This document shows, piece after piece, positions 3,981 through 63,746 of a stretch of DNA of 64,000 nt. How positions within the stretch are numbered: position 1 is the stretch's first letter; every line of letters begins with the position of its first letter. The stretch lies in contig JAKSZP010014537.1 of assembly GCA_022478985.1 (NCBI GenBank), forward strand, positions 62,001 to 126,000, written 5' to 3'. This stretch comes from Massospora cicadina. Taxonomy: Eukaryota > Entomophthoromycota > Entomophthoromycetes > Entomophthorales > Entomophthoraceae. Both the position numbers and the translations under genes were made by a program. The notes below the pieces were generated by a model. It saw nothing but the letters and a program-made list of their open reading frames with translations, did not search any database and was not told the origin of the DNA.

Positions 3981-4111
3981 TAAATTTATTGTGGGGAAGG
4001 CCGACCATGGGACGGACACTTCCAAATATGACTCAGATGAGACAAAACTCAGTACCAGGTGAGGCACCCCAGAGAAGCGATGCTATCTCTTGTTGCCAGC
4101 GGGAACGCCAC

Positions 4112-26120: not shown

Positions 26121-26134
26121 CATAGACTATTATT
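26121..26134. repeat. target-site duplication of element B, 5' side
   Basis: catagactattatt, 13 of 14 bases identical to 24183-24196. Confidence 0.75.
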
Positions 26135-26253: not shown

Positions 26254-26346
26254 CTAGCTCTCTTTCTGCTAAGCATCACTTTTTGAAAATTAATTCAGCC
26301 TGAAATTTAGCTCCACTAAAGAGATTTACGAAAACTATTAGCAAAT

Positions 26347-28794
26347 ATGGCGGGAAACCCCGCAAAAGAACTCGCAGGCTATGCTAAACGAGCCAGCACC
26401 ACCCCCAAACGAAGCAACCCTCGGTTACCCACCTCAGGGTCAACCAGAATCACCCGCTCTCAAGCAGCAGCCATGAAAGCAGGCACCACCCCCCAACCTG
26501 GAGCTACTTCAACTAGCGCCAGTTCACCTGATCGCACTTCTGCAACCTGCACGCCTAACAGTTCTGTGTGCGCTGCCTCCCACCAACCCGCTGGGCCCCC
26601 TCCAACCAAGGAGGCCATCACCCACACTGTTTTAATGGCGCCTGCTCAGTTGAATGCAACTCAGCCCATCCAGGCATTCACCTCCTCCATTGTGTCAGCT
26701 AATTCAGCCCCATCTATTATTGCTGACGCCGTGTTTCTGGATCCCTCCATGAGGGGAGATACCCAGCTACCTGGCCCCCAAACCCTCAGATGTAAGGTTG
26801 GATTAGCCGCACATTCTGGTTCACTAAGCACCAAATTGGGACAATCTATTCTTCCCAATGGGGATTTAAATGGTTCAGATTTTGGAACTTCACACCAGTT
26901 CCAATCTCACCCGTCCCATTTGAACCCCATAATCGGCACTTCTCAAGTCGGCACTTTATCTCAATATGCTGAAAACGACCAATTCACCAATCAGCCAGTG
27001 AGTTTTGCCCACGAAATCACAGCAAATACTCGGGCTGAATTTACCCAAATAGATTGGGATGGTGATGAAACATCTCCCTTCTCCCAATTGGCTGGAGTTA
27101 ATTCCAATCCGGATGGGCCTCCCCAATTTAGCAAGGCCCAACAATCCGCCCCTAAATTTAATATGACGCCAGCAACTGCTGTAACATTCCAGCAACAAGG
27201 GAACTCCACAAACTTGTTCAAACCACCAGCTCACACTAAACCTGCGATTGCAGCCCAAAGCAAACATAAACGTACCAAAGGAGCCACTGGGGCGTGGCAA
27301 AAACCTCTGACACCAACGCTATCCAAAGCTGATCCCCATAAAGTGGCATTCATTGCTGATGTTAAGAAGAAATTGGCTGAAACTAGAGCGCAAAAAGCTC
27401 TACCTCACTCAACCCTCTCCCACGCAATTCGCCTTTATTATGGGCATAACCCTGTTAGTTTCTATACAGAGGATTACTTCTCATACTTTGCAGCGATTTC
27501 GGAGACATTTTCAATTAACACCACCAACCATGAATCAGCGGAGGGCCACTAAATCGATGTGGGCTTCACTGAAGCTGCCCTTGCTGACCATGCTGCCACC
27601 CTCCAGGTCATTATTCCACGTGGATCTCTTCGCATCTCCCGCACACGCTCTCACCTGGAGAAAATTTCATGGGTTACTTTTTCCAACCTACCAACGACTG
27701 TTGATCCTGAGTCTCTTAAACTGGCGCCCCATCGTGGTTTAATGGAGTTTGGGTCTGTTCTTTCAGTGGACTTTAGCGTCCCCTCTTACTATGCTCCCAC
27801 TCAAAGAGCTCGCACTGCTAGGGCGTCGTTCATCCCCTCTCCTACTGTATCCCGCAACATTGAGGTTATTCCTCGTATGGCGGTAGTTGGGGCATGCCCT
27901 GAGATCTTTTTTGTCGACCCTGATCAGGCGCGCCCCCGGTGTTCATGGTGTAACGCCCTTGGACACTTGTATAGTTGCTGCACAGCTCGAAAACAAGCCC
28001 TCTTAGCCACCACCCAGGGGCCTAAACCAGGCCAAAAACGATCCCACGTGGCCGCAGCAGCAATTCCACAACCCACATTATGGGTTCCCGTTCAAGAACT
28101 GTCCCCTGAGGCCTTACGCCTAACAGTTGAAACAGCTAACCCCACTATTGGTATGGGATACCTTCACGCTCATGCCCCCCTTCCAGTGGGCACCCCCTCC
28201 AATCTCCTAGAGTCAACTCCTTCTCTCACCAAGCGCAAGGCATCTCCCACAGGGTGCCCCTCCTCAGCCACCCCCACTCAGGGCTCCGCGGCACCCCCAC
28301 CAACCTCCACCAGCGATTTATTGCATCAACCCTCAGCTCCCAATGGAGCTATGACCACCAGCATGGACTGGCAACCCGCGGCCTGCGGTAGAAGTGCCAC
28401 CTCAAAGAGTCCTACCCCAACCCCACAGTCCATTTCGCGCGGATCCTTTGCAGTGTTAGAGGAAGTGAATATGGACTCAGACTCATCAAATGGGGACACC
28501 GCGGAGGTCATTATTGAGCACCCTCAGGTCCTTCCCCTGCAACGGAGCGGGGGCAGCATCCTAGGCTGGCTTACTGGGTCCTCCGCCCCCCCACCCTCTC
28601 CTTCCCCTCAGAATCCTCAACGCTCCTCACGGATTGCAGCTAATAGTCAAGCTAAAGGACTCAAAACTAGCCGCCTCACAGAAGCAGGTTTAAGCGCTGG
28701 CAACCCCCAGGACATGGAGGGGAACAGCTATGAGTCCCCATGGCAGCACCCTGGCCCTGCAATCCATCAACGCAAATGGGTTGCGGGACTTTAA
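26347..28794 (+). pseudogene. LINE E ORF1: gag-like RNA-binding protein
   Basis: The start is ATG 26347 (MAGNPAKELAGYAKRA), the first ATG after the leader. The frame is open to 28794 (816 codons including stops) except for a single in-frame TAA at 27550-27552, after which the same frame continues without a shift. The N-terminal ~330 residues are low-complexity, rich in Pro, Ser, Thr, Ala and Gln, with basic patches. The central region from about 27590 (HAATLQVIIPRGSLRISRTR; ISWVTFSNLPTTVDPESLK) has an RRM-like feel. A CCHC knuckle is at 27940-27981 (CSWCNALGHLYSCC). The tail is again Pro/Ser-rich. The product would package element RNA. Its last 65 nt overlap the start of ORF2. Confidence 0.88.
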
Positions 28795-31700
28795 GCGGAG
28801 AGCCCACCTCCTCTGAAACTTCAGGTCAGCACAAATTGACATCGCTGCTGTCCAGGAGCCCCATATCCTCCCCCACGAACAATCTGCATGGAATGAACAG
28901 TTTGGAGGCAACTCCTTCTGGACAAACCATGCCGCCATTATTGTTTTAAATCCCGGGTTAAAACCCATTCTTTTTCACAATATCTAGGTGGCTGCCTCAT
29001 ACTGGCCAAACTCACCACTCCTGACTTCTCCTTCTTCGCTGCAAGCATCTACCTGCCTAATGCAGGTCAGGAGCAAAATCGGTTCTTGGAAGAGCTCATC
29101 CAACTCAATCTCCCACGGAATACAGTCCTCTTAGGAGATTTCAACACAACCATAAGTCGCGTCCGTGACTCTTACCCCCCTGCAGCAAAGAAACGCCCTG
29201 AATCAAGTCGCCTCCAGGATTTCCTTCGCCTGAGTGGCTTTATATATGCGCTTCCACCCTCCGCATCTGGCCTAGGTTGCATGACTAGGATCCAGTATTA
29301 TGGAGGAGCTTTCCAGTCAGCGTCACGCATAGATATGGCACTGATTGACCCCCTGCTAATTAGCCGCGTCTCCTCTCCCTCTCTCGTGACAACCATCTGA
29401 GTGATCACAGGTCACTCACCGTTGTCCTCACCACCACACTTAGACCGTCGCGTAGGTTCTGGCCTAGGGTTGCCCCAGCTCTTCTCAACAACCCCTTCAC
29501 TAAGGAGAAGCTGTCTATGACCATCCGGGAGACTCTCACCTCCCCCACCCCACCTTCTTGACCACAAGGCTAGATAGGCGGTGACCAAGGAGGTCATCAC
29601 CCGCGTTGCTTACAACTGTGCCAAAGCCTGAATGACTGCAGCTCGCGCCAGAGTCAAAAGGGAGGAAGCCAGAATCAGACATCTGGAGCGAAACTGCCAG
29701 CCTTCGCCCTCTCCCGGATGGTTGGAAGACTGGGAAGCGGCGCAGGAAGCACTCCGCTTGGAGCTCACACTGCAGGAAGAACGGGCAGCAAACTTTACAA
29801 CATCTCGTTACTATGCTCAATGGGAACGCCCCACCCGCTTCTTCTTTCAGAAACAGAAAGCCCGGTCAACAGCGCAGGATATTACTGCACTGAAGATTGG
29901 CACTACAACCACTTCAGATAAGGAGGAAATCACGCAGGAAATACACCGCTTCTACTCCAGCCTCTTCCATGCCACCCAGGTGGACCCATCGGACATCCAA
30001 GACTTCCTGTGGCAGGCTCCAGAGCCGCCCATTGACCCACGGGCTGATGAGGCTCTACTGGCGCCTATTTCCATCCAGGAGGTGATGGAAACCCTTCTGA
30101 AATCCCCACGGCTTAAAGCCCCAGGCCCAGATGGAATACCCTTCGAGGTGTACCTTCTGGAACCTGCAGTGATAGCCAGAACCCTCCGCGACCTCTTCAC
30201 TGCACTCTTGGTGAATGGCGAGGTCCCCCCCGACTCCAGAGGCTCAATCATGACCCTCATTCACAAGAAGTCAGACCGTGAGAACCTGGAGAACTGGCGC
30301 CCCATAGCGTTGGTCAACACAGACCACAAGCTCTTCACGAAGCTTCTGGCCAACCGCATCACCAAATGGGTGTTAACTCGCCTCTCCCCATCCCAGCACG
30401 GTTTTATTCCGGGGAGGTCGTTATGGGACAACTATAATGACCTTCACGTGACTTTGACTGCTAACTCTCGTAAGGTGAATGGCTTTGTGGCTCTCCTGGA
30501 TATGGAGAAAGCATATGATCGGGTAGCCTGAAGTATATTGATGCTTCCCTGGCCCGCTTCCATCTCCCACCCGCAGCTAGGCGCTGGATATCAGCGCTCT
30601 ATGACCAGCTCCACGCCAGAGTCCTGGCGCCAATGGGTTTTATAGTGGCAGTACCAGTTGGACAAGGTCTCCGGCAAGGGGACCCCCTGAGCCCTATCCT
30701 TTTTAACATCACCCTTGACCCCCTCTTGGCCTCCTTACAGGACAAGCTAACAGGGATTCTGGTCCCAGGTAAATCCCCCACACGCACCATGGAATTTGCA
30801 GATGACACCGCCATTGCATTTGGCTGCCCTGGGGATGTTGCCCTCGCTGCTGTGACCATTGAGAGGTACACCAAGGCGTCCAACGCCATGGTCAACACCT
30901 CCAAGACAACAGTTGTACAGGTCGGCTCCCCCACCTTCCCCCCACCATTTGGTATTGAACCTGAGCGCGGTACCTTCCGTCACCTGGGCGTTCTCACCAA
31001 CCAACAAGGAGTTGCGCTAAAAGACAATGAGGACTTGCTCCTCGCAGCAGTTAACTCCAGGATTGCCAGCTGGAACTGGCGGCACATCACCCCCCAGGGT
31101 CGAGCTCTGATGGCCAATGTGTTCCTCCTCTCCAAAGTCTGGTTCCTAGCGCACGTCTGCCCATTCACAGATGCCTTTTATACGAGGCTCAATGTACTCC
31201 TCCGCTGTTGGATCTGGGGCTCAAACCATCCACCAATGGCCCTCTCAACCATTTCCTGACCCTGCAATGAAGGGGGCGTAGGGCTTCTGGACACGCGATC
31301 CCACGCCACCACAATCTTCCTGAAGTTCCTATGGCCAATTATCTGCTGGGACGCGACCCCCATGCCCCAATGGGCGCCCGCCCTCCGCCAGTCAGTGTCA
31401 GCAGCCCTGGGTCTTCCTAGAGCATCTCTGACCTCATTAGGGGAGTGGCTCACAACCACCCAGGCCATCGCCTAAAACCGAACTCATCCCCCTACTGGAA
31501 CTAGGCTCTCCTTGCCCTGAAACGAGTAGGCGCGCGGATCCACCATGCCTTCCCATACAGAAGGGAAGGCCCTGGCCTCAGCTCCCGTCGCCATGCAATT
31601 GTGCACAATGGACAAGTTGTCACAACTCGCCTCAACCCCCAAGATCATCCTCCCATCCGCCCAAGACTCCTTGAGATCCTCCCTCCCTCCGTGAGATTTG

Positions 31701-32219
31701 ACCTTAAGGAATTGTGGAAGGACGTCTATCACCCCATCCTGTCAGCAAAGGTGTCCAACACCTTATGGAGGGTGCTCCACTGTTCATACAGGACAGGGGA
31801 CCGGACTGGCCCTACCTTCCAGCACTGAAGCTGCCCACGCTGTGTGGAGCCTATTGACTCCCACCTCCATCATTTTTTTCACCTGTCCAGGTGTCGCCGC
31901 ATTTTGGCCAAAGGCCCGTGCGCTCCTCCATGCTCAGCCCTGGTCTGGACACCCTGTGCAAGACCTCATGTTTGAGCAGACATTGCCTGGTTGCCACTGA
32001 CCCCTCCATGTCCTCGCCTATGCCACAGCCATCTAGACCATCCATAACTCCTTCCTTCGTGCTGCCTTTGACCAGCAGGTGTGGACCCTTCCACACACGA
32101 TCACCCACTTTCAGGTACACTTTGAGATGGCCCTGAAGGTCTGCACTATGTCGCCAACCCTCCCCGCTCAGTTGTCACTGCAGCACAGCTCTGGCGCGCA
32201 AACCCCCTCCCTTTCTTGA
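28730..32219 (+). pseudogene. LINE E ORF2: endonuclease-reverse transcriptase
   Basis: The start is ATG 28730, inside the end of ORF1. The EEP domain follows at once (TLALQSINANGLRDFKRRA, IDIAAVQEPHI, NHAAIIVLNPG); a TGA near 28817 and a frameshift near 28985 interrupt it. It then continues with FAASIYLPNAGQEQ, LLGDFNTTISRV and SDHRSLTVVL near 29400. RT covers about 29640-31260: APGPDGIPFEVYL, HKKSDRENLENWRPIALV, HGFIPGRSLWDNY, LLDMEKAYDRVA, then a TGA and shift near 30531, GLRQGDPLSPILFN, and catalytic F-A-D-D at 30795-30806. The C-terminal Cys/His region (FFTCPGVAAFWPKARAL, ~31870) lies in another frame. The stop is provisional because the end is frameshifted. Only a few lesions separate it from an intact frame. 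Confidence 0.87.
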
Positions 32220-32328
32220 TGCCTCCTCCCTCACCCCTTCCCTCGCCTCAGGCTCTTAGGAGCCCAGGCGTAATTCAATAAACATCAATGAATCCCCCCT
32301 TGGGTTGGGACCATCTAGTACTAAAAAA

Positions 32329-34257: not shown

Positions 34258-34269
34258 ACAAAAACCCAC
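34258..34269. repeat. target-site duplication of element C, 5' side
   Basis: acaaaaacccac matches acaaaaccccac at 43379-43390 at 11 of 12 positions. After removing the later insertion, the bracketed unit is about 1.9 kb, the family length. Confidence 0.65.
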
Positions 34270-34357
34270 ATCTCTCTTCCCGCTTAAACCAACTTTTTAG
34301 AGAATTTTAATTATCAGACCAATTAGCAATTTAATTAGCTGCAACGCTAACCCACTG

Positions 34358-35846
34358 ATGTTCACGGCAATCTCACCTGCTGCTCCTGTGTGAGGCAATG
34401 GCAAAACCCCACCCAACTTTTTCTGTTCAGTGGGAAAACATGCTCATAATAGTTTATCCAGTCCTAAAAACCTTGGGTTGGTTTGATCCACTCAAGGATC
34501 TCACCATCCACCTCACACAATCCCAGGCTGTGCCCCGCTGCCCTCTCATACTTCCTCGCTCTCACATGTATTTTATCCTACAGGAAAAAGGGAAATTGTT
34601 CCAATATGCAGACAAATTCATAATTGTCTAGCACTGGAAGTGATACAACCCACCAGTTTTATCAATTTCCACCCCTATAAAGGGTACTTTATCATTGGTT
34701 CTACATGCGAAGCTGATGCTGCCACTACAGCAACTGTGCCCCTTCTCTTTGTGAGCACCCCAATTTCCACAACGTGCACCTAGATCCCCATTGACTTCAA
34801 ATTAGTGATATAGTTCGCTGTGTTGGCCACTCACCTTCCCCCTGCGGTGCTCCAACAGGAGCTGATGGAAGGTTTTCAGTCTACAGCACTGACCTTATCC
34901 TTCAATTTGTGGTCCCCAATGGTGCTACACGCCCCACTGGGCCTTGTTCATTTGCCACAATCAGCCCAGCATTTAATAACATTGCTGAGCAGATTCCCTT
35001 TGCACCTTCATTGCTTCTGACACTGACCACCCATTCAGGGCCCGCATCAAGGGCGGGTGCCCTTTCTGTCCATCCTTCTTTGAGTTAGATCACTCAAAGC
35101 ATATCTGCCCCTACCTCAATGCTTCTGCCACCTCTTTAGTCTTGTCCTCCTTTCTTCCCACCTACCAATGACCCCAAAGCCATCTGGTCATGAGGTACAT
35201 ATATACCCCCTCCTCCAAAAACCTGTTGCTGCTGCTGCGTCCACAGCAGCCAATCAGACCCCAAGTCCAGTGACACCAATGTTTCCACCAATCATGAAGT
35301 GGCTTGGACAACAATGTTCTCCCAAGCCCCCACCCAATCGCCAATCTCAGCCATCCTTATTGAGAGAACATGAACTTGTATGACATAAAACCATGAACCT
35401 CATTAATGAAACTGAAAAATTGGGTAATGTAATTGAAGACTCCAAAATTGACTTGAAAGAATTTATCCATCTATGAACCCCATTGAGATCCCTCAGCGCT
35501 TTTATGCCCCACGGCCAAATGACAATCTGTTCTGCACCCAGCACCATTTCGCTGTGGCAGCTGCTGCCCAACCTGAAACACGTTTCCTAAACAACGCTGT
35601 TGCCCACACATCGGCCATGCTTGTAAAAAGGTCTCCCCCTCCAATTCTTGCCCTGAACCTGCCCCCACAGAGCAAAAAAGCCATTCTACAGTTCATAAAC
35701 ATGCCATTGATGATGTTCAGAAATTAATCCCCGCTTCAAAACCCAAAGCAAAGTTAACCCACGCTAGCACTTCTTTACTATACTAACTTTCTGTCGTCCA
35801 CATTCAGACATAGAAATGCTCATCTACTTAACTAGGTGCAATTTAT
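34358..35846 (+). pseudogene. element C single ORF, 5' part
   Basis: The start is ATG 34358, aligned with the starts of elements A and B by the following pattern (M..ISPAAPV, a stop where W is expected, then G-N-G-K). The N-terminal region reads PLKDLTIHLTQSQAVPRCPL. Past a frameshift, the region before the knuckle reads TLSFNLWSPMVLHAPLG in a shifted frame and AFNNIAEQIPFAPS-like sequence further on. The knuckle area near 35060-35110 shows CPSFFELDHSKHIC, with one Cys changed to Phe. The C-terminal region includes PQRFYAPRPNDNLFC and LPPQSKKAILQF. It is more decayed than element A. The frame stops being followable at 35846, where LINE F begins. Confidence 0.75.
35834..35846. repeat. target-site duplication of LINE F, left
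   Basis: aggtgcaatttat matches aggtgcgatttat at 43038-43050 with one difference. Joining the outer flanks restores the protein order seen in element A. Confidence 0.75.
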
Positions 35847-35851
35847 TTCTA

Positions 35852-37758
35852 TTTTTTATTTAACTGAGGCAAGCCAATCTGGGGATGGACATTACCTAGC
35901 TCCAAGGAGAAAAAAACTACGGTAGAATTTAAACGAACAGAAAGAGATGAATGGACCACTCAAACTGAATAAAAAAACTAAAACTAATTAACCAGGTCAG
36001 ATGCGGTAAACAACTATGCGTCCATGGTGGGGAGTGAGTCAGGATTGGGAGGCTCAGCTTCCTCTTCTGTGTTGGACAGTGTACAGCAGAGCGCTGAGAG
36101 CATGGGCGTTGGTGCATCCTTGAAATTAGGTTTGAGGTAGAAAAGTGGCTTGGGAAGCTTAAATTTTGCTATTAGGAGGGTGATGATATATTCAGAAAGG
36201 GATTTTTCAGCCTTGAGGCGAACTTTGGGTAGCATGGTAAAGTTGGCGATGTTGTTGCTGGTAATGCAGGTCTTGGGGCTAAATTTCGTAAGCAATAAAC
36301 TTTTTTTACTGCTTGTAGGCAACTTGTTGGAATTGGAGGTATACTTTTTTATGGATTTGTTGCATGGGGAAGGATAGGTGCAGGTACCTCCTTGGCCAAG
36401 ACTGCAACTGATTTTGCTACAGCCTTTTGGAGGGGGTGACAATCAGAAGAGGCAACAGCCTCTTCGATGAGTTGGTGGTCACTTTGGAATCCATCTGCAT
36501 CTGAGCATAGAGCATAGTGGCGAGTTGGGAATTGAGCCACGCATTCTTTGTTTAGGTACATTTTGAGGTTTGGGCCTCGACTGAATTGGAGATGGGATTT
36601 CTCAAATCATTGACTTCCTCCAAACAATTCCAGGGATTTTGGTTGAAGACGATAGGTTGATTGGAATATGGGTGGTCTGGATTGGGTGGCTGGGTGTCTT
36701 TTGGATTCACTGGGGTCCATTCTGGCTCCTGATTAGTTGGAGTAGGAGTGGTGGTTTGTCATTCCAGTTCCTTATTGGTTGAATTCATGGCAGTTGCATC
36801 TACCATTTTGGGTGGAGGGGGGAGGATTGTGCCCCATTAAAAAAAGATTTTGATGTCAGCTATGGGAGCATTGTGGGGAAAGTTGAGCGTGTTGGCTCCA
36901 TCTTAGGCTATGGTGAGGCAGCGCCACTTTGAGTGGTCCAGGTTGAAGCAAATGAGGCTGATCGTGCGCCCTTATCTACTCTGGCCCAGAAAGGGTGGTC
37001 AGGGGCAGAGGGGATAACGATGCAAGGGGGAGTTGAAATGGCAATTTCATTTGATATTGGGCATATGGTTGCAAAGGCACAAGGGCCCAATAGTTAGTTG
37101 GCTCCGTTGGGAACCATAAATTGTAAAATAGGTCAGCGCCATATACTGGCAACCCATCTACTCTTTCATTAAATATACTTTCAGGGGGGAGGTGGGTGGG
37201 GAGGCCTGCAAATTGAACTAAAGAGTGGTATCATCCAGCATCTGGGTGCGAGTGGTTGGGATAGGGGTTTCCTGTAACACTAGGGGAATGTTGGCTGTGA
37301 TTGCAGCATCAGCTTCACAAGTGAAGCCAAGGTTGAAGTACACTTTGTAGAAGTGTAAGTCAATAAATCCTGCAGGCTGCATAAGCGCTGGGCTAATTCA
37401 ATTATTTGTATATTGTTGTAGGGAGCAAGTTTCCATATTTGACCTGGAGGTTAAATTGCATCTTGCTCTGGGGTTGCACAATGGGGCTGTAAGGCACCAT
37501 TTGAGAACATGCGAGGTGGAGGGTGAGATCCTTGGGTGGAATGTATTGACCTGAGGAATTGGGGGTTGGTCAATCTGGTTCAAAAGCATTCCCCGCTGGG
37601 TGGAAGAAGCTAGGAGGGATTTTTCCGCTGCCCCATTTTAGAGCAGCGAGGGTTAGGCCAAGGACATTGGTGGTTTGCTGGTTGTCAGTTTTTCAGAGTT
37701 GTTTAGTTCTTCTATAATTCTTAATTTGCTTAAATGGGTTATCAAGCAGAAAGAAAAA
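35852..37758 (-). mobile_element. ORF1-only LINE derivative, element D
   Basis: A minus-strand unit of about 1.9 kb. Its 3' end is atgtccatccccagattggc, then ttgcctcagttaaataaa, the family terminus. Its 5' end (ttctttctgcttgataaccc) matches those of A and B. It lies between LINE F and the left half of element C, apparently inserted into the A-rich 3' tail of LINE F; both edges are low-complexity A/T, so its TSD cannot be read with certainty. Boundaries are good to about 10 bp. Confidence 0.78.
36014..37667 (-). pseudogene. element D single ORF: gag-like with novel C-terminus
   Basis: The start is ATG 37667-37665 (M-S-L-A), aligned with element A. After an early stop and shift, the frame has IPPKDLTLHLACSQMVPYSP and FNLQVKYGNLLP. 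The region before the knuckle is seen as MGPCAFATICPISNEIAIST and IPSAPDHPFWARVDKG. The C-terminal region is clear: GFQSDHQLIEEAVASSDCHP, then LQKAVAKSVAVLAKEVPAPI, and KDAPTPMLSALCCTLSN near 36070-36120. It ends with PPNPDSLPTMDA and TAG at 36016-36014, the place where element A ends. The C-terminal conservation across A-D is the best evidence that this frame was under selection. Several stops and indels are present now. Confidence 0.78.
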
Positions 37759-37949
37759 ATGATTTTTAATTTTTAGTTTTTTAATTTTTTTTGGGAGTAC
37801 ATGACTGGAACGATGCACTCAAGGGATGGGATGGGCAAGTAATTGGGAATATTTTTAAAGCAGGTTGCAAATGGAGTGGTTTGTGCTATTTGCAATACCT
37901 TGGCATTGTGCCTTGCTATGGGTTGCTGTTGGGACATACCTTAGTTACC

Positions 37950-40900
37950 TCAGGTAAATGGGCTTACCATAAACATTTTTGTTGCACCAATGAAATATTG
38001 AACGTGTGTGAAATGGCCCAAGATGCTACTTGAGTATGTTGTTTCAGTGGAATGGCATCCCCAAACAGCCAGTAGCCAAAGATTTTTGTTTAGACTCAAA
38101 TGAAAGTTATTGATGGCTGTAACTGGGTCAGACTATTGCGGGCTTGCAGTAGCGGCAACTCAGCTACTATCAATTGCATATAATGCTAGAACAAAAAATT
38201 ATCTTGTTGTGATCGAAGTCTCAATGCCTTGACCCAGCCTGGAAGAGTTAATCTTTGGATATGAGGTTGGGATTTGTGGATTGTAACCTGCTAAGCGCAC
38301 CGCTTCTTCCCAGACTCTTACCAATGTTTTACATTAAACATACCTGTGGTGCCACGAATCTTCTTCGTTGCACACTGTGCACTTCCTGTGCGTGGCGTTT
38401 GAGCGCTCCCCTGTGCAAAAAAGGCGTTTAGCAACTCCCTAATGAAGGATTGTAATTTTGGGGTGGAGTAGAGGCTCACTTGATATTCTCTAAGTGGTAT
38501 TACAGAGCTCAGGAGGGCGAATTATTCCCCAGAATCCAGAGCTGGGATTGACTGGATGATTGGCCCCCTCTCCCTCAGAATTTGCATTGGCTGGTGGCGC
38601 TGGGTGCTGATGAAGTTTTAGAGTTTTATATTTTCTTCCACGGCAGATTTTTTGAGGTTTGAGTTCAATTCTTGTTTTTGATTTTTATATCTTGAAATAA
38701 TTGAGCATCCTCTTAGCTTCTGGCGTCACGTCACATGGCCCTACTAACCCTGGGCGTGAACCTAGATATTTGAATTGGGTGGTTGGGGATCCCGGGTTCC
38801 TGAGGGCTAGGTTTCTGGCTATTTGAGCCCTTGCTGCAGATTCCCATAGAGGAGGACTCCTTTTTAAGGTCGCAGCACTGATCCATTTCATAAATATGTT
38901 TGCAGTATTGCGTTCAGGGTTAATTAACCCCATCCCGCCTTCTTAAGTTGGCTTTTTAGTTTGGTGATCCTGGCTGGAGGGAACATGAGCCATATAACCA
39001 GGGCTGTAGAATTGACGTGAGTTTTTTAACAAAAGCTTGCTGAAGGCAATATCATGTGTGGGGTACCAAATTTTAGAGAAGAGCATAGTATTATCAAGGC
39101 GATATTTTCCAGCCAGAGATGTCTTCTTGAACTTCCACCTTGCCACTGTCCTTTGGATATCCTGAAGTATCTTCTATTACACCTCTTGAGTTGCTATACC
39201 CGCACTTGTGATGGAGATCCCTAGGTGTTCGATGGGTTCCTTTGGGCAAAGCATCTGAAAGGGTGATGGTATAAAGATGGATTTATTACATTTCTTCACT
39301 TTGCTTGTGCTTGTGGCTTTTCTTTTTGCCCTCTTGTTTTTAAGGCCTAGGCGCTTAGCATTTAATATCCTCAAGGCTTGTGATTTGGTTTTGTTGAGTT
39401 TGGCTAAGAGGATTTTCATATAGGCTGATTATCTCTTCTACCTTTGTGGAATCCGCCTTGGAGGAGACCCCATCCACACAGTTATCCGCAAAGGCCAAAA
39501 CCTTAAGTTGTTTTTGCCCCTTGCACTCTATACAAGCTAACTGTTTCTCCATCATCCATAGGAGGGGTAAATTGAGAGGTTGTACAAGATAGGGCTAAGT
39601 GGGTCCCCTTTACGGAGGCCTCTTTCTGATGTGACAGTAGGTGAAATGAATGCAGACCCTAGAACTGAGAATGTGGACAACAGCTGATGGTTTGCTATCC
39701 ATGAGATAAAGGCTTGGGGAAGCCCTATTTGTGAAGTATTGCCGCCAAGTGTTCCCAGTCTACTCTATCATATGCCTTGGTTTGGTCTATAAAGCAGAGC
39801 GTGCCCTTTATCCACCCAATGTGTTTGTTACTTGGTGGATGTTGTCCCAGATGGCCTTTTATGGGGTGAAACCATGCTGCTGTAAGCATTGCACTCCTTA
39901 GCTTTTTTAGAGCCAATTAGCCATTATCTTTCCCAACGTCTTCTTATCCGCGTTGATTAAAGATATTGGGCGCCAGTTGTTTAGGTAAGTACGGTCCCCT
40001 TTTTTGTGGAGCACTATGTGTAGGATTCCGCGCCTCCTGGGATCACCCTTTCTCTTGCAGACTTGAGTTAAAGAGAGATAGCATGGGCATCTTTATTAAT
40101 TATAGTGTGCTTTCATAGTACTCATAGGGGATGCCGTCTGGTTCTAGTGACCTGTTGGTAGGGAGTCTCTGTAGAACCTGTGCTAGTTTTTCCTCCGTTA
40201 TGGGGTCAACAAGGTTGGTTTAATGCTTGTCGTGGTTGGGGACAGCATTGGTGAAGTAGTTTTTAACATCTTCCTCTGTTAGGGCTGCCTTATAGAGTTC
40301 AGAGTAGCAGGAGTAGGTAATGAATGCTACCGCTTCTGAGTTGCTAGTGGTTTGGCCTTTTCATGTTTGGAATTTAGTGAGACTGGCGTTTTTGGACCTC
40401 ATTTTGTAAATCTGATAGAAAAACTAGGATAGTCAATCCCCTTGAACAGCCATCTGACACCTGCTTGGTGGCCTCAGTGTGCTTTTGGAGTTGTTTATGT
40501 TTCTTACCAATTAGTATCTGTTTCACCCAATTTCTAGCCCACTGTGGTGAGTAGCCGCTATGGGGTGGTATCTTTCCGGATAGTTTAATATTCTCTAGGC
40601 TTTGGAAAGTTTTTCTATTTTCTTCCTTGTGCGACGGGAGGCTGCATGAGCTGGTGCGGATAGAATCTCCTTTTCAACATTTTCCACTGTTGTTATAAAG
40701 TTTCAGAGTCAGTGCACTTGGCTAGTTATTCTACATGTCTTTTGTCTTATTTTCTACTTGGAACAGATTCACACTCTTTGGCAGCATCCCTTTCCAATTA
40801 TGGTTCTTGGGTGGTTCTTCCTTTGATTGGATACCAATTTATATAATTCTGTGGTCTGATAGATGTAGGACGATTTTTGCAAAATCTTCAGCTTGTGTTC

Positions 40901-41508
40901 CAATGACGCAGCCATGAGTATACAATCCAGTCTAATGGCGATGATTAGTTGATTAACTACAGTATTTAGTCGCTTCAGATTTGTAAAATATAATTTTGAT
41001 AATGATTTAGCATCTAGAAGGTTTTTGTTGTCATCAATTGCTGTAATTGGTTCAATTCTATTGGAGGGTTAGTGACATTTGGCCATTTGTCACGAGTTCC
41101 GTCCAGCCAACAATTGAAATCCCCTATTAAATCACTTCTTCTGGAAGGTTTAAGTCAAATAGGTTGCTCAAAAACTCTTCCCTTTTGTCCGCTTCAACAA
41201 GGGCATCTACTGAAGCGGCCTGATATGATTAGTTCCCATTTGAAGACCAGAACTAGAGCTCTTCCTTCCAAATAAGAGTATTAGTTGGTGATTGTAATCG
41301 CAGCTGATGTTTTGACTACAAATACACAAAAGCTGGTCCTGAATGTTTGAAAAGGGAGAAAGAGCCTGGACCACACTTCCTCCTTTCCAATGGTTCACTT
41401 GCACTCCTGCAGGGCAATCACATCCACCGGTGGGTTTAGCAGGAGCATTAGTTTCTTATCCAGGGATTTATTGGATGAGAGTCCTGCTATGTTGAGAATC
41501 CCAATCAT
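37950..41508 (-). pseudogene. LINE F ORF2: endonuclease-reverse transcriptase
   Basis: The start is ATG 41508-41506, followed by an EEP N-terminus (MIGILNIAGLSSNKSLDK, then VDVIALQEC). The endonuclease middle is badly decayed. RT landmarks are CFIDQTKAYDRVDWEHLA (39830-39760) and the active-site block LAFADNCVDGVSSKAD, where the catalytic F-A-D-D reads F-A-D-N at 39492-39481, a loss of the second Asp. Later blocks include PIEHLGISITSAG, LAGKYRLDNTMLFSKIWYP and LINPERNTANIFMKWISAAT. The C-terminal Cys/His motif is seen as CTVCNEEDSWHHRY near 38360. The C-terminal end is approximate. It carries many stops and is certainly dead. Confidence 0.82.
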
Positions 41509-42892
41509 TAGCGAGCCCAATATGCCTGCTATGACTGCATAGGGCATGATTGACCCTGTGAAGTTGAGGTGGCTTGCTTGTATTTAGACCTAGTCATAGG
41601 ACCCTCGTAAATGGCTTGGGCTGGTTTTGTACTTTATTGCCATTCTTGTGGCCCAGAGTTCCGATTTGGTTTCTCTGTAAAGTGAGCACTATTGTCCTAT
41701 ATCCCGTTGAAGGTTTAGAAACAGTTAGCTTGTTAACGGGTTTGTTGACTGGTACTTGAATGGGTTGAGCTCCATTGTGTACAGGAAGGAGGTGTGCATT
41801 GTCCATTTCTGATTGAAATGCCTCTTTGCTCATTATCTTGCAGCTTCTGGGCTGTCTTAGGGACGGTCATACTAAAGAGGTGCTTATGTTGTTGCTCAAT
41901 GTTGCTCTTGGCTGCTTCCTCCCAAGCTGCTTCTTCCTTCTCTCCTTCTGCTTCTGCTTGGCCTTCGCCGCCGCCTTTCTGGCCATTTTCGCTTCTTTAC
42001 AATGCTCTGGGGAGACCGGTTGGACAACCTCATAGTTAACCTATGATCCCTCAGAGATGGGCTGTTAATACGTCCCCCTGATCTATATCCTTTGGACTTT
42101 CTTCACACTCAATAAACATTTTCCCTACCATGTAGCTGGACAGGCATTATTTTTATGTCCTACTTTGTTGAAGCCCGCGCATATGGGCGGGCTCTTTTCC
42201 TGGGCGGACTGAGAAAGGGCGAGACTGATTCCCCTTTAGGTCAAAGATGTATACTTTGCGTGGGATTGTGTTGATGTAACCATTGGTGTCCATGCCTGGG
42301 CGTATCATTGCTACAGCCTTGTCTATAGCCAGGTGGTGCAAGAGGAGATTTTTCCATTTAAAAATAAGCTAGTTCTCCATATGCGCTCATGTCGCTTGTT
42401 AGCGCTGCCTCCAGGTAGTCCAGCCTTTCATTGGTTGGGAGTCCTTATAGTACCACAAAAAGGTTTTATCATCCCTAAAACAGGTTCTTGTGATTATCAT
42501 ATTGTCTGTAATTTGTTCAGGCTCATTGCCTACTCTCAGCTTAGTGTAGGTGACTACAAATGGGGTCACTATGGCTGCATTAGCGGTCTCAGCAGTAGCA
42601 AAGCTAAGGTCTAAGATTCCCGTTGCAAGTTTTTCAGTCAAGCTTACAGCTTCTGGGAAGCGTCCTGGGATAGCTTGACAAACTGCTTCATAACTTAGAG
42701 GTTCCTCAACGCCAAAGTTCATGAGCAAACCAAATTCACATGAGTACTTGGGAAATGCGTGGCTGATATTTCCAGTTCAGTGGAAATCTTGGACCATCTT
42801 GAGATAGTCACTGGTTGGGACATATGGTCATTTTTTGAACTATGGTTAAAGTTGAGCAGCTGGGCCTTCTGTACCATGCTGTTCCCCATCAT
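41490..42892 (-). pseudogene. LINE F ORF1: gag-like protein
   Basis: A plausible start is ATG 42892-42890 (MMGNSMVQKAQLLNFNH). After a frameshift near 42730 the frame reads IPGRFPEAVSLTEKLATGIL, then LDLSFATAETANAAIVTPFV. Further on, DKAVAMIRPGMDTNGYINTI leads to a zinc knuckle near 42130-42190 (CAGFNKVGHKNNAC) in which the second Cys has become Phe. This is collinear with ORF1 of LINE G (GKAIAVLTP ... CTHCDVFGHKAHAC). The C-terminal part (41500-42100) includes a Lys/Ala/Glu-rich stretch in keeping with a basic tail. The exact stop is not determined. Confidence 0.72.
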
Positions 42893-43037
42893 CGCTGCTG
42901 CATAGGTGTTTGAGTTCAGTGGATTAAGTCACTTTGTCATCACCTGATTGGATGGAACAATTAAAACAAGTTGTGATTGGTTGAATCAATTTAATCACCC
43001 GTAAACAAAAGTGATGCTTATGGGTAGACTAGCTGGC

Positions 43038-43050
43038 AGGTGCGATTTAT
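43038..43050. repeat. target-site duplication of LINE F, right
   Basis: aggtgcgatttat, one difference from 35834-35846. Confidence 0.75.
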
Positions 43051-43296
43051 GCTCATAATTTTGACAACCAACCAATTTTCTGTGAACTCACCCCACATAT
43101 TGCTGATAAGCCCACACCCTTGTTCTCTGCCTTGACCCGCGCTCTGTATGATGAGGAACCCGCGGATATGCCCTCTGATTCCCTTTTCCCCTTTCATTAT
43201 GGTGGGATAAGCGTCTCACAGCTGTACCACCTGGTTGGTTGTATTCTTGTTTTGTGTGTCTCACTTCTTATTTTGTGGCTGTTTCATGTTTTTTAA
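43051..43296 (+). pseudogene. element C single ORF, 3' part
   Basis: Directly after the TSD the plus-strand frame reads NFDNQPIFCELTPHIADKPT, then PLFSALTRALYDEEP. It aligns with the C-terminal end of the element A protein (NFHESPIISDIKPYATDAPT, then PLLSAV). That alignment identifies this orphan piece as the missing end of element C. The frame runs to a TAA near 43296; the ancestral stop was probably near 43220, where A and C share the bases ccacct.gttggttgt. Confidence 0.78.
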
Positions 43297-43378
43297 AATT
43301 TGGTTAGTTTTTGTGTTTCTGTTTTGGTACTTTCTGTCTCCCAGTCATCATACCTTGAATAAAAAATGAAAATTTGAA

Positions 43379-58162: not shown

Positions 58163-60877
58163 GCCAAATCGCCTCACGCAAGTACAGCCACATTGCCTCA
58201 AGAAAGTACACTGCCAACATAGAAACAATTAGGCGACCTTGGTGGAGCTGGACCACCTCAAGCTCAATGTTCTGAAGTCCAGCTGCAGCTCCAATTGGGG
58301 TAACAAATGGGTGGAAATATTAGCCCGCCTAAATGCTCTCATATTCAAACACCAGCACAGAATCAAGGTATTGAGAAAAGGTAAGTTCATAAAAGAAGGC
58401 AAAACCTTCTTGACATACTTTTTTCGCCAATTCCACTCCTGCAGCAACCAGCCCATGTGCACACAGGTCCACAAAGTTGACGGCACTGTGGCAACTGACC
58501 CAACGGAGGTCAAGGTGGAAGTACACCATTACTACACCAAACTATACTGTGACGCCTTAACGGACCCCCAAAAAATTAAAAAATTTATACAACCTGCAGG
58601 AATACAAAGCACACTGCCAGACTATAACCTCCTAAATGTCATAACAAAGGAGGAACTCTGGGACACAGTCCACGGTGCACCTTATAGGAATTGCCTAGGA
58701 CCAGATGGGATACCCTATAAAGTTTATAAGAAATACTCAAGCAAATCGCGCCCCTCCTTCTAGCATCCATGAACCAATGACTGCTGGAGACACGTCTCCT
58801 ACCTGGCGGCCAGGACTCCTATGTCATAACTCTGTACAAAAAGGGTGACAAATTGGACCTGGCCAACTGGCGCCCAATTGCACTCTCTAACACTGATATA
58901 AAGCTACTTACAAAAATTCTAGCATCCAGATTAGGCACAATAGTCTCCAATATCCTGTCACCCAATCAATTTGAGTTCATACCAGGGCGCTCAATCTGGA
59001 CCAATATATACTCAGTTGCCAACATATGACAATCCAAAGAATCTGGAGCCCTGGTATTCCTAGACCAGGAGAAGGCATATGACCGTGTTAGCTGGCCATA
59101 CCTGAAGGAATGCCTGAGCGCCTTCAATCTCCCACCCAGATTCATAAGCTGGGCGATGATCCTTACAGAATCAGCATCTATGGCAGTATGCGTCCCTGAC
59201 TTTCTAACCAACAAAATCACACATCATGCAGAGGGCTCAAATAAGGGGACCCCCTCAACCCACTGCTGTACAACTTCAGCTTTTATTCACTCATTTGCGT
59301 TGCTGACTCACGCCTCATGGGCACAATCGCACAAGGCCAGCCACCAGTCAAGATACTAGCCTTTGCGGATGACCGCATAAAAGGTATAGCTAACAATAAT
59401 TATGCCTGACAACTGGAACGCACCATGGAGAGGTATTCCATTGTGAGCAACACATCGCTCAACAAAAGGAAAATGGAAATAATTCTTCTAGGCAAGTACA
59501 CCAACAACTGAACTACAACACCCAAACTTTACAGACTCCCATGAAGGAACAACCCACTCTTCCTACCCTTTTCATCACCTCCTTCAATCAACCCTGTCCA
59601 CCACCTTGGGGTATGGCTGGAGACAGGAGGGTACGCCAACAAAACAATGGAAAACAACCTACTACAGCGGATCACCAACTGAGTTGCCTCCCTTAAGGGA
59701 AGATCCCCAAGACTAACAGGGCGATTAACAGTTGCCAATTCACTCATCCTCCCAATGCTATGATTTCCCGCACACGCAATATCCTTCTCATCAGCCTCCA
59801 TGTCCTCAATCCGCGCACTCATCCAGGGCTGTCTGTGGCCTGGGACCCAGCCACCCGTAAGAGTGGAAACACTCTTTGGCCCACGCTCCAGTGGAGGCAT
59901 AAGCCTAATGAACTTTGAGGTCCACGCTAACCAGATACTGGGGACCTGGATAAAGGAAGTCCTTGCCCCAGACATCCCGCAACAACACTGGTACAGAGCT
60001 ACAAGGGCCAAATTTGCACAGGCGCTAAAATCATCCAACCCACACAACCCATCAAGCCTGCTCACATACCTCATAAACCACCCCACAGCAGTAGGCCCTC
60101 ACGGAACTCCCCTCACACTTCAAACAACTCCTCCACACCATTTGACACATGGGGTGGACAGTCACTATCACAGGCACTAGTCAGGGGAGGGGCAGACCCA
60201 GAGCCCAATTTACGCTTAAGAACCCAGAGGACAACTCCCAGAGGGACACTCACAATGGGACCCCAGACATAGCAAGAATAGACTATCTGGACGCTCAATA
60301 CATCCCATATGACCTCACACAGCAGAAGGCAATATGGAGGCTGACACACCATCCGCTCCTCCAGCCAAGGGGAAGAGCTAACACCTGGCGCTGCCTTAAA
60401 ATAATGTACAGGACTTCAGATTGTGCCAAATCTCTTCATGCGGAGTGTGCTGTGTGTGGAGGGGAAGGCACCCTACACCACCACCTTGAAGCATGTCCCC
60501 CATCATGAGCCATATGGTGGGAAGTTGCGCGCCTGCTTAGAATCCAGAATGACCAGAAACTTTCCATCTCAAGGAGCCTCCTTGTGCTCCAGATTGAGTC
60601 CCCAATACCACCTACCCTCTGCTCCTTAATAGTAACCATCGCAATGTGGACAATCCACACCATTGCTTTGGATGCATTCAGGGGTACCATACCAACCATC
60701 CGTGGGACAATCAATAGATTTCACTTCCACCTACTGGAACACTTCCAAGCCTGGCTTTATGGATACATGAAGCTGAGGCAGCAAAGGCTCATGGAGTCAT
60801 TGTTCCCAGTATGGTTCCTACACACGGACCCCTTTCTACACACCTGCTCCATAACAGGGGAAACCCCCTTGGAGTAG
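58163..60877 (+). pseudogene. LINE H ORF2 fragment: reverse transcriptase
   Basis: The fragment opens upstream of the RT (58239-58763: KKFIQPAGIQSTLPDYNLLN, CLGPDGIPYKVYKKY). It then continues in shifted frames with FKKGDKLDLANWRPIALSNT, FEFIPGRSIWTNIYSVAN and FLDQEKAYDRVSWPYLKEC. The catalytic F-A-D-D is intact at 59362-59373 (ILAFADDRIKGIANNN), followed by NPVHHLGVWLETGGYANK. The C-terminal region parallels LINE G closely (FGPRSSGGISLMNFEVHANQ; CAVCGGEGTLHHHLEACP at about 60445-60500; IVTIAMWTIHTIALDA; FPVWFLHTDPFLHTCSI) and ends at 60877. It carries several frameshifts and TGA/TAG stops. There is no start codon, because the 5' end is lost by truncated reverse transcription. Confidence 0.88.
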
Positions 60878-61033
60878 AGTATCCAACACCCCCCACACCT
60901 GGCAGTACCGGCTGGCAACAGGGGTAGCTTTTCTACTCTGGGGTTCCTAATTCAGTTCCACTTCGCCTTCCCCTCTCACCTATATTTTTTGGTATTGCTT
61001 GTCCCCTGGTCGACTTGCCTCAGTTTGATAAAA
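58163..61033 (+). mobile_element. LINE H, 5'-truncated member of the LINE G family
   Basis: A 2,871-bp plus-strand insertion with exact 15-bp TSDs. It contains RT and the C-terminal part of ORF2 but no endonuclease or ORF1. The 3' end is ttgtcccctggtcgacttgc, then ctcagtttgataaaaa, nearly the same terminus as ORF1-only elements A and D. This gives a direct link between an RT-encoding LINE and the ORF1-only units. Confidence 0.93.
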
Positions 61034-61048
61034 AAGCTAAGTGATTTT
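61034..61048. repeat. target-site duplication of LINE H, 3' side
   Basis: aagctaagtgatttt, exact match to 58148-58162. Confidence 0.92.
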
Positions 61049-61803: not shown

Positions 61804-63746
61804 ATGTAACTTTTCTCTTTCCTCTCAGCGTAACTTTACAAGCCAAATTACACAAATTTATAAAACAAATCAAATTTGCCTGTTGTAGTTTCGCTCTGAT
61901 GTCCTTGGATTCTCCGCTGGCTGCTCCAGCATAGGGCAGCGGCGAAACTTCCCCTGCCATTTTCTGTCCAGCAGGAAAACGCGCTAAGACTGGTTCACCC
62001 AGTCATTCCAAACCTATGGGCTGATTTGTTCCGCCCAAGGACCTAGATGCCCACCTTGCTCATACCCAAGCGGTACCTCGCTGCCCCTAGTGCTCCCCTG
62101 GAGCAACATGCGCTATGGCCTAAGGGTCAAATATGGGAAACTATTCCCATACCACGAGTAAGCCATTATCAAAACGGCACAGGTGGTGATGACACCCGCT
62201 GGTTTTATTGATTTCCGCCCCTACAAGGGGGATTTTGACCTTAGCTTCACCTACAAAGCTGATGCTGCCACTGCAGCAACTGTGCCCCTGGTATTCCAGG
62301 GCATCCCTCTCCCCACAACTTGGACTCAGCTCCCAGCGGACACCACTTTGGTGGTTCAGTTTGCTGGCCTGCCCACCCACCTCCCCCCTGAAGTGCTCCA
62401 CCAGGAGTTGATGGACGGTTTGGCAGCCTATGGCTCCAACTCCATCTTACAATTTGTGGTCCCAAATGAGGCCACACGACTTACTGGGACTCAGGCATAT
62501 GCCATGATCAGCCCTGAATTTAATAAAATTGCAGTGTCAATTCCCCATGCACCATTATTCCCTCAGTGCCTGACCATCTGTTTTGGGCCCACATCGAGGG
62601 TGGGCGGACGATCTGTCCATCATGTTTTGAGTTGGACCACTCAAGATGCAAGCACCCCTCCTCAACCACTTCCGGTGGATTAGATGACTCATCCACCAAC
62701 CTCCAATCCGCTGCCCACCCTGTACAATTTCCAGTATGGGACACAATCCTACCTCCCCCACCCCCAAAGCCTGTTGCTGCAGCTGCACCTGCAGCCACCA
62801 ATCAGCCTTCTCCTCACCCCAATGCCATAAATTATTCCTCCAATCAAGCATTGGATTGGATCCCAGTTTGATCCCATGCTTCCTCAAATGAATTGACCAA
62901 ACCTCAACTGTGCGCTGATTCCCCAATCAAATTCAACCAAAACCCATGGGAATTATTGGCTGAAATTAACAAATCAGGTAAGTTCATTGAAGAACCATCT
63001 CTGCAAATCAAGCGGTTCATTAATACAGAATGGGACACCAGATACCCCCCTCAACTTTATACCCCACAGCTAAATGCCAAATCATTTCGCAGTGACCACC
63101 AGCTTGCAGTCAAAGCAACTGCGACACCAGATTGCCATCCCCTGCATAAAGCTATTGCTAAATCAGTAGCGATTCTCACAGGAGGAATTCCACCTCCTGT
63201 TATCCCCGCAACTTTAACTCCAAAAAGTAAAATTATGGTGAACCAGCTATACAAAAACACAAATGATGCTATCCAGAACGTGGCAACTATAGCACGGAAT
63301 CCAAAAGCAAAAATAACCTAAACCAACATTGCCACTTTTGTTAAACTCCCAGACGCCCTCATCAATGCTGAAAATGCTTTAACCAAATATCTCAGTGCCA
63401 TTTATCTAGCTGGCAATTTCCATGAAAGTCCAATTATCAGTGATATTAAACCCTATGCCACAGATGCCCCAACGCCATTACTGTCAGCTGTGAAATGCAC
63501 TCAAATATTGGAGGAAGAAGCTGCTTACAAAGAGGCTGCCAAAGATGAGCCCCCTGACCCCCCTCCCCTTCCACCATGGAGGGATAAGCGGTTTCCGCTG
63601 CCCACCTAGTTGGTTGTTTTTCAATTTTTTTGTTCATTCAATCTGCTCTTTAGGGTGTTTTGTTTGAACCAAGTAGTTATTTTAGTTTTTAGTTAGTTTT
63701 AGTTTTGGTAATGTCCATCCCCTGGTCAGCTTGCCTCAAATAAATA
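61804..63746 (+). mobile_element. ORF1-only LINE derivative, element A (best copy)
   Basis: A 1,943-bp insertion with exact 17-bp TSDs, sitting inside a 68-bp tandem repeat whose period is restored on removal; both ends are therefore certain. The 5' end is atgtaacttttctctttcct. The 3' end is aatgtccatcccctggtcag, then cttgcctcaaataaata. One ORF of ~570 codons occupies 61899-63609. There is no endonuclease or RT coding capacity. The length, 5' end, ORF and 3' end agree with elements B, C and D, so this is a repeated family and not one deletion product. Confidence 0.93.
61899..63609 (+). pseudogene. element A single ORF: gag-like protein with novel C-terminal region
   Basis: The start is ATG 61899 (MSLDSPLAAPA, then TAG where W is expected, then G-S-G), aligned with the ATGs of B and C. 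Regions in order: KDLDAHLAHTQAVPRCP; RYGLRVKYGKLFPYHE; VVMTPAGFIDFRPYKGDFDL; VVQFAGLPTHLPPEVLHQEL; SNSILQFVVPNEATRLTGTQ; SAPDHLFWAHIEGGRTIC. At the knuckle (62614-62655) the order is CPSCFELDHSRCKH, so the last Cys position is His. A Pro/Ala linker follows, then the C-terminal ~250 residues: PWELLAEINKSGKFIEEPS, FRSDHQLAVKATATPDCHPL, KSVAILTGGIPPPVIPATL, VKLPDALINAENALTKYLSA, DIKPYATDAPTPLLSAV. It ends at TAG 63607-63609. There are frameshifts near 62090 and 62545 and stops at about 62159, 62869 and 63312. Role inferred: RNA binding. C-terminal function unknown. Confidence 0.88.

What the first reader, a model, noticed from the sequence alone, without database searches (positions are those of the whole stretch)
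61804..63746. A family of ORF1-only, HAL1-like LINE derivatives (elements A, B, C, D)
Four separate units of 1,943, 1,924, ~1,905 and ~1,907 bp share a pyrimidine-rich 5' end, one gag-like ORF starting at the same place, and the same 3' terminus. None can encode endonuclease or RT. Exact or near-exact TSDs bound A (17 bp), B (14 bp, one mismatch) and C (12 bp, one mismatch). Equal length with independent insertion sites means a replicating family and not random truncation, since 5' truncation would remove ORF1 first. Mammalian HAL1 elements are the known analogue; I am not aware of a described fungal equivalent.
Basis: partly seen in the sequence, partly recalled or inferred. Interest (0 to 1): 0.92.

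Follow-up and report, generated by a model that had tools for sequence, protein, structure and literature searches.

The report
Half-LINE parasite of a fungal LINE
This fungal genome carries dozens of checked, and probably thousands of, copies of a 1.9-kb jumping element that keeps only the first gene of a LINE retrotransposon and ends in the same predicted RNA hairpin as a larger LINE in the same genome, which likely copies it; codon patterns show that selection kept that one gene while the family spread.

Summary
A, B, C and D are four colinear copies (1.90-1.94 kb, 52-74% identical) of one ORF1-only retrotransposon family in what is very likely Massospora cicadina. In the assembly, 36 of 40 scored copies are full length; of the 30 that could be read, 28 have target-site duplications and no two share flanks at the junction. 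The new piece is the partner. Two 5'-truncated LINEs in the window (3981-8608, 58166-61034) end in the same 45-nt tail, a predicted hairpin with compensatory changes. A covariance model trained only on A-D finds both (E 1e-6, 1e-8; next 0.74) and the ends of 5 of 5 fetched complete partner copies. The partner (5.27 kb) has an ORF1 homologous to the element's (E 6e-12). Two other LINEs in the window lack the tail. ORF1 was under purifying selection: differences among A-D concentrate at third codon positions, and among 30 A-like copies shared variants do so while private ones do not. A SINE-like repeat carries the tail too. So it works like mammalian HAL1 or Drosophila HeT-A, but is an independent, deeply diverged fungal family. 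The Repbase name 'HaTad1' (Blumeria) may be a fungal precedent; unchecked.

The parts
61804..63746 (+). element A, full-length ORF1-only element
   Evidence: TSD, 39 other scored genome copies
61899..63609 (+). ORF1 region of A (about 570 codons, broken by stops and frame changes; CCHC-like motif from 62614)
   Evidence: codon-position signal
63702..63746 (+). 3' tail of A, predicted hairpin
24197..26123 (-). element B, full length; tail 24200-24244
34268..35846 (+). element C, 5' part (interrupted by LINE Q2 with D)
43051..43366 (+). element C, 3' part; tail 43321-43365
35856..37770 (-). element D (5' limit approximate, TSD not established; sits at the 3' end of LINE Q2); tail 35857-35901
3981..8608 (-). 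partner LINE P1 ('L2' in the scripts), 5'-truncated: part of ORF1 with CCHC-like motif, endonuclease-, RT- and zf-RVT-like regions (all below Pfam's cut-offs); shared tail 3984-4028
58166..61034 (+). partner LINE P2 ('L5' in the scripts), 5'-truncated; RT region recognised by 66% nucleotide identity to P1's (its one ORF has no Pfam hit); shared tail 60986-61030
26257..32326 (+). other LINE Q1 ('L3' in the scripts), with ORF1 and RT, different 3' end: negative control
37785..43037 (-). other LINE Q2 ('L4' in the scripts), inserted in C; different 3' end: negative control

Best explanation
Elements A-D belong to a high-copy family of ORF1-only 'half-LINEs' whose 3' tail, a predicted hairpin, matches that of a 5.3-kb LINE of the same genome, so that they are likely copied by that LINE's endonuclease/reverse transcriptase. 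Shown: colinear 1.9-kb copies at independent sites with TSDs; no ORF2; ORF1 homologous to the partner's ORF1; one 3' tail with compensatory changes at the exact ends of both; codon-position patterns of purifying selection on ORF1 while the family spread. Inferred: the element is transcribed from its own pyrimidine-rich 5' end, its ORF1 protein (RRM-like region plus CCHC-like motif) coats its own RNA, the partner's ORF2 protein recognises the 3' hairpin and inserts a copy by target-primed reverse transcription. The family probably arose from a LINE of the partner's kind that lost ORF2 long ago and has persisted as an ORF1-only lineage since.
For: Tail: A against the last 70 nt of P1 and P2, 0 of 1,000 shuffles as good each; against Q1 and Q2, 784 and 352 of 1,000. 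The model from A-D only finds P2 at 1.1e-8 and P1 at 1.2e-6, next 0.74, and the ends of 5 of 5 fetched complete partner copies at 7.5e-6 to 0.0053. Hairpin: 59 of 66 cells paired, 6 of 11 pairs with changes on both sides (1 of 500 shuffles), slid controls 0-2. ORF1: profile of the element's ORF1 hits partner ORF1 pieces at up to 6.3e-12 over about 190 aa. Propagation; 472 exact copies of one ORF 26-mer, 0 for the reversed control. Selection: third-position excess in 6 of 6 pairs of A-D, p 1.7e-5 to 4e-19; dN/dS 0.39, 0.42, 0.29 for A against B, C, D; in 30 A-like copies private variants 258/276/253 by codon position (p 0.58), shared ones 120/89/148 (p 6e-4), difference p 9e-4, and 0.008 without CpG-like sites. 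One origin: upstream of the tail, 5 of 6 pairs of A-D match at 0 of 500 shuffles, while of 8 comparisons with P1/P2 the best is 31 of 500 (B-P1); P1-P2 0 of 500.
Against: No intact copy was seen. Mobilisation by the partner is inferred from the tail; there is no assay. The 5' ends of element and partner share little beyond a pyrimidine-rich start (A 184, B 13, C 718, D 19 of 1,000 shuffles); even among A-D only A-B 5' ends match significantly, and B's 5' end matches Q1 (0 of 1,000), so the parent LINE is not pinned down. C-D do not match upstream of the tail (196 of 500). Tail pairs B-C, C-D, C-P1, C-P2 and D-P1 are not significant by pairwise shuffles. One hairpin measure, further pair types, is no better than shuffles (180 of 500), and the tails' folding energies are mostly unexceptional. 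The tail model hits 27 of 29 further copies at E up to 0.01 (misses L016, L029). No Pfam domain matches the element's ORF1; the structure model failed (pLDDT 46). The short 3' piece of C alone shows no third-position excess (58 sites, p 0.46).
Confidence: 0.87

Rival explanations
1. The copies are repeated, independent internal deletions of full-length LINEs, not one ORF1-only lineage.
For: HAL1 elements of mammals arose several times (PMC5753468, passage). The element's ORF1 is homologous to partner ORF1.
Against: All four window copies are colinear end to end at down to 52% identity, and 5 of 6 pairs share a 3'UTR before the tail that P1/P2 do not have. Selection is seen among A-D and inside the A subfamily.
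Confidence: 0.07
2. Processed retrocopies of a domesticated host gene encoding an ORF1-like protein, spread by LINE machinery.
For: Single coding gene, TSDs, A-rich 3' ends.
Against: The copies end in the LINE's own terminal tail, not a plain poly(A), and variants shared by several copies show successive source copies under selection, not one gene.
Confidence: 0.03
3. Fragments of a LINE spread by segmental duplication or assembly error.
For: The genome is about 92% transposable elements (PMC9584336, passage), so repeats abound; 62 flank-flank repeat matches were seen.
Against: 28 of 30 copies have their own TSDs and no pair shares flanks at the junction.
Confidence: 0.01
4. The shared tail is inherited junk and the elements are copied by Q1/Q2-type LINEs.
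For: B and Q1 5' ends match at 0 of 1,000 shuffles, C and Q1 at 4, A and Q1 at 23, D and Q1 at 188.
Against: Q1 and Q2 lack the tail. The tail is more conserved than the rest of the 3'UTR in 6 of 6 pairs of A-D and than the 5'UTR in 5 of 6, covaries, and is also carried by a SINE-like repeat.
Confidence: 0.05

Closest known systems
HAL1 (half-L1) elements of mammals
   Same: Non-autonomous LINE derivative encoding only ORF1p (PMC5753468, passage).
   Different: Not descended from mammalian L1; fungal host; specific 3' tail, where mammalian L1 uses relaxed poly(A) recognition (PMC3747384, passages); one lineage persisting down to 52% identity with ORF1 under selection.
HeT-A with TART/TAHRE, Drosophila telomeres
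   Same: Gag-only non-LTR element lacking pol, thought to borrow RT from a companion; gag conservation suggests negative selection (PMC5537684, passages).
   Different: Dispersed insertions with TSDs, not telomere arrays; shared 3' hairpin-like tail with the companion.
Stringent-type SINE/LINE pairs (eel, maize)
   Same: Shared about 50-nt 3' tail forming a hairpin with compensatory changes (PMC3747384, passages).
   Different: The parasite here carries an ORF1 gene; a SINE-like repeat with the same tail exists as well.
HaTad1 elements of Blumeria graminis (Repbase name)
   Same: Listed with Tad1-24_BG and SINE2-1_BG as a fungal tail-sharing set (PMC3747384 table); the name suggests 'half Tad1'.
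   Different: Sequence not seen; the meaning of the name is my inference; host recalled as an ascomycete, far from Massospora.

Membership tests
ORF1-only half-LINE (HAL1-like, by mechanism) | ORF homologous to ORF1 of a complete LINE | tested here: met
   Partner ORF1 pieces (60+ aa, stop-free) of 19 of 20 loci at E 0.0053 or better, best 6.3e-12; the twentieth is truncated P1 itself, 0.015
ORF1-only half-LINE (HAL1-like, by mechanism) | No endonuclease or RT | tested here: met
   ORF1 fills the element; no match of 6 RT/EN query pieces inside any of 30 copies at E 1e-3
ORF1-only half-LINE (HAL1-like, by mechanism) | Replicating family with TSDs at independent sites | tested here: met
ORF1-only half-LINE (HAL1-like, by mechanism) | Shares its 3' end with an RT-bearing LINE of the genome | tested here: met
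ORF1-only half-LINE (HAL1-like, by mechanism) | Shares its 5' end with the same LINE | tested here: inconclusive
   A 184, B 13, C 718, D 19 of 1,000 shuffles
HAL1 sensu stricto (mammalian L1 derivative) | Descent from mammalian L1 | tested here: not met
   Host is a fungus by protein hits; ORF1 matches a LINE of this genome
Stringent-type tail recognition | Terminal hairpin with compensatory changes in LINE and parasite | tested here: met
   (6 sequences)
Stringent-type tail recognition | Hairpin required for reverse transcription | not testable with these tools
   needs a biochemical assay
L1-clade LINE (partner) | RT phylogeny within L1 | not tested
   M. cicadina LINEs are called L1 in PMC11105155 (passage); no tree made here
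HeT-A-like telomeric element | Arrays at chromosome ends | tested here: not met
   dispersed copies with TSDs

The most novel reading that the evidence does not exclude
A long-lived ORF1-only retrotransposon lineage in an early-diverging fungus, kept by selection on its own ORF1 in cis and sitting in a three-tier parasite chain: one LINE hairpin tail serves an autonomous LINE, a half-LINE and a SINE-like element. ORF1 protein would then be the ticket that lets an RNA compete for a foreign ORF2, separable from reverse transcription.
Probability: 0.5. Interest if true: 0.75.

Novelty: new variant of a known kind. Interest (0 to 1): 0.62.

Why it matters
Why a non-autonomous element should keep ORF1 when SINEs do without it bears on what LINE ORF1 proteins do and on cis preference. 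Here three kinds of element with one 3' tail sit in one genome, so the benefit of ORF1 can be read from copy number, age and selection. The private-against-shared codon test indicates selection during spread. It also adds a high-copy family, for which I found no description, to the 1.5-Gb Massospora genome, and indicates a hairpin-type 3' end in its LINEs.

Tried and rejected
Structure prediction of the RRM-like region (mean pLDDT 46) was not used. Pfam gave no domain for the element's ORF1. A protein search with the C-terminal half had no hit among 4,080 candidates; the third search found 6 proteins of 7,994 scored, all M. cicadina. ORF1 comparison with truncated P1 alone was weak (0.015; hhalign 0.011 with probability 3.9%), and Q2's ORF1 piece did not match (E above 40); it became strong only with complete partner copies. 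The automated TSD scan failed for Q2 (1,252 of 1,500 random pairs as good), presumably because D sits at its 3' end; the duplication around Q2 plus D (13 bp, 1 mismatch) is read by eye. ARAGORN found no tRNA in 6 of 6 SINE-bearing loci, so a tRNA origin is by eye only. Weak tail hits such as 52901-52930 (0.74) were dropped as chance. In some searches variants present in exactly two copies were left out of both classes. Wrong-phase controls of dN/dS were printed for A-B only; split by type, third-position excess there is p 0.067 for A-C transversions and 0.051 for A-D transitions.

Full report
HOST. All 7 distinct proteins found by homology are annotated Massospora cicadina (5 of 104 candidates; 6 of 7,994, four of them the same; 0 of 4,080). 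The window lies in an assembly of 1,469,884,898 bases in 16,968 contigs; the published M. cicadina draft is 1.488 Gb in 19,694 scaffolds with 41.13% GC (PMC9584336, passages), and the window has 41.3%. Identity with M. cicadina is inferred and very likely. In that species LINEs classed as L1 make up 6.3%, unlike its relatives (PMC11105155, passage).

ANATOMY. A (61804-63746) and B (24197-26123, minus) are complete. C is split: 34268-35846 and 43051-43366, separated by LINE Q2 (43037-37785, minus). A 13-bp duplication with one mismatch (AGGTGCRATTTAT on the plus strand) read flanks Q2 plus D; D (35856-37770, minus) sits at Q2's 3' end. The automated scan found no TSD for Q2 alone, and only a weak one for D. 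All four elements align end to end (1,869-1,909 aligned positions, 1,968 columns). Each has a pyrimidine-rich start, one ORF region (about 570 codons in A), a 3'UTR (137 nt in A) and a terminal tail. The ORF is broken in every window copy. In B the CCHC-like motif is intact (C-X2-C-X4-H-X4-C, read); in A and C one ligand is lost. No Pfam domain matches.

GENOME-WIDE TEST. With A as query there were 12,709 first-look candidates, of which 40 were scored; 36 of 40 (A included) run from query 1-15 to 1940-1943. This ranking favours long copies. A probe from the 3' end alone also gave 40 scored hits, of which only two were fetched; both are long (query 11-1943 and 56-1943). One exact 26-mer from the ORF occurs 472 times, the reversed control 0 times; since 30 copies differ by a median 12.6%, the family probably numbers thousands (inference). 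Of the 30 copies whose DNA was given (A and 29 others), 28 have a TSD above the 99th percentile of 870 mismatched flank pairs; the misses are L016 and L030. There were 62 flank-flank repeat matches but none touching the junction on the same side. Six RT/EN query pieces match inside none of the 30; they match the flanks of two: A itself, where P2 lies upstream, and L025, which is inserted in a partner-type LINE.

PARTNER. Window LINE P1 (3981-8608, minus) has endonuclease-, RT- and zf-RVT-like regions, all below Pfam's curated cut-offs (E 0.0028, 4.9e-5, 1.9e-4). P2 (58166-61034) is 66% identical to P1 over 726 nt of that region; its one ORF has no Pfam hit. Both have TSDs (3 of 1,500 random pairs as good). 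Their terminal 40 nt or so match the element's: A against P1 and P2, 0 of 1,000 shuffles each; B 2 and 4, D 303 and 0, C 842 and 153; A against Q1 and Q2, 784 and 352. Upstream of the tail the best of 8 comparisons with P1/P2 is 31 of 500 (B-P1), while P1-P2 is 0 of 500; among A-D five pairs are 0 of 500 and C-D is 196. A covariance model built only from A-D finds P2 (1.1e-8) and P1 (1.2e-6), then nothing better than 0.74 in 64 kb. In the assembly 9,588 first-look candidates gave 40 scored copies, 39 besides P1, at 90-95% identity. Of 20 loci, 17 of 19 non-reference copies start at the same place (reference 839-851), which gives a complete length of about 5.27 kb. The 5 fetched copies whose 3' end was reached carry the tail there (7.5e-6 to 0.0053); the sixth runs off its contig.

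HAIRPIN. The six window tails each fold alone into an outer stem of 4-5 pairs, GGUAA:UUGCC or a variant (folding energies are mostly unexceptional, z -2.7 to +0.3). On the alignment 89.4% of 66 cells pair and 6 of 11 pairs have changes on both sides (1 of 500 shuffles reaches either; further pair types 180 of 500); sliding the partner columns gives 0-2 such pairs. RNAalifold finds 10 of these pairs. With six sequences, and a structure drawn from them, this is supportive rather than final.

ORF1. A profile of the element's ORF1 has, among 1,555 six-frame pieces of the window, its two best non-family hits in the ORF1s of Q1 (5e-4) and P1 (0.015); Q2's piece does not match. Complete partner copies make it firm: pieces from 19 of 20 loci at 0.0053 or better, best 6.3e-12, colinear over about 190 aa through the CCHC motif.

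SELECTION. Differences between A-D concentrate at third codon positions in 6 of 6 pairs (p 1.7e-5 to 4.2e-19). Nei-Gojobori dN/dS is 0.39 (A-B; wrong phases 0.94 and 0.77), 0.42 (A-C) and 0.29 (A-D). In 30 A-like copies, private variants fall evenly on codon positions (258, 276, 253; p 0.58) while those shared by three or more copies do not (120, 89, 148; p 6e-4); the two differ at p 9e-4, and at 0.008 without CpG-like sites. So inserted copies decay freely, whereas lineages that gave rise to others kept ORF1. That the protein acts on its own RNA is inferred.

SINE-LIKE THIRD USER. The A-D tail model hits 27 of 29 element ends and four further places at E up to 0.01 in these loci. One is the partner-type LINE in L025; three belong to a repeat of about 285 bp seen in 6 of the 30 loci. 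Seven copies of it are 72-87% identical; 3 of the 7 reach the tail threshold. By blastn it matches the window's elements only in the tail. It has A- and B-box-like stretches by eye, but no tRNA call (0 of 6 loci).

LITERATURE. HAL1 encodes only ORF1p and arose several times (PMC5753468, passage). HeT-A lacks pol (PMC5537684, passages). Tail-sharing hairpins are typical of stringent LINEs (PMC3747384, passages). Searches aimed at ORF1-only LINEs (listings only) showed no fungal case by title, but a table in PMC3747384 names HaTad1 elements of Blumeria; the listings showed no paper describing them, and I opened none of those besides PMC3747384. So I do not claim the first fungal case.

VERDICT. 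A real, independent half-LINE family; mechanism well supported by sequence; new variant of a known kind.

Noticed in passing
L004:701-930 (-), L006:3444-3736 (+), L010:941-1230 (-), L020:37-324 and 724-979 (-), L024:3716-4006 (-), L027:4475-4757 (-): A SINE-like repeat of about 285 bp ending in the half-LINE/partner-LINE tail; seen in 6 of 30 loci, tail model hit in 3 of 7 copies.
   Followed up: partly
window 34268-43366: Three-level nesting: element C holds LINE Q2, at whose 3' end element D sits; gives relative ages.
   Followed up: partly
protein P0008: M. cicadina gene model on an 8,079-bp contig that joins half-LINE ORF1 (start and end) to partner-type ORF1 (47% over 95 aa to P1): probably an annotation fusion of neighbouring elements, but a composite element is not excluded.
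   Followed up: partly
L025 / L031 (C7166): An A-type half-LINE inserted inside a partner-type LINE between RT and the C-terminal part.
   Followed up: partly
window 44202-45374 and 51281-52470; 9456-10047 and 22941-23529; 14395-14730 and 20454-20791: Other direct repeat pairs at 74-80% identity, not identified.
   Followed up: no
window 26257-26300 against 26080-26119: 5' end of LINE Q1 resembles that of element B (0 of 1,000 shuffles) although their 3' ends differ.
   Followed up: partly
window 59529-60086 (-): 185-aa ORF antisense to P2; probably spurious.
   Followed up: no
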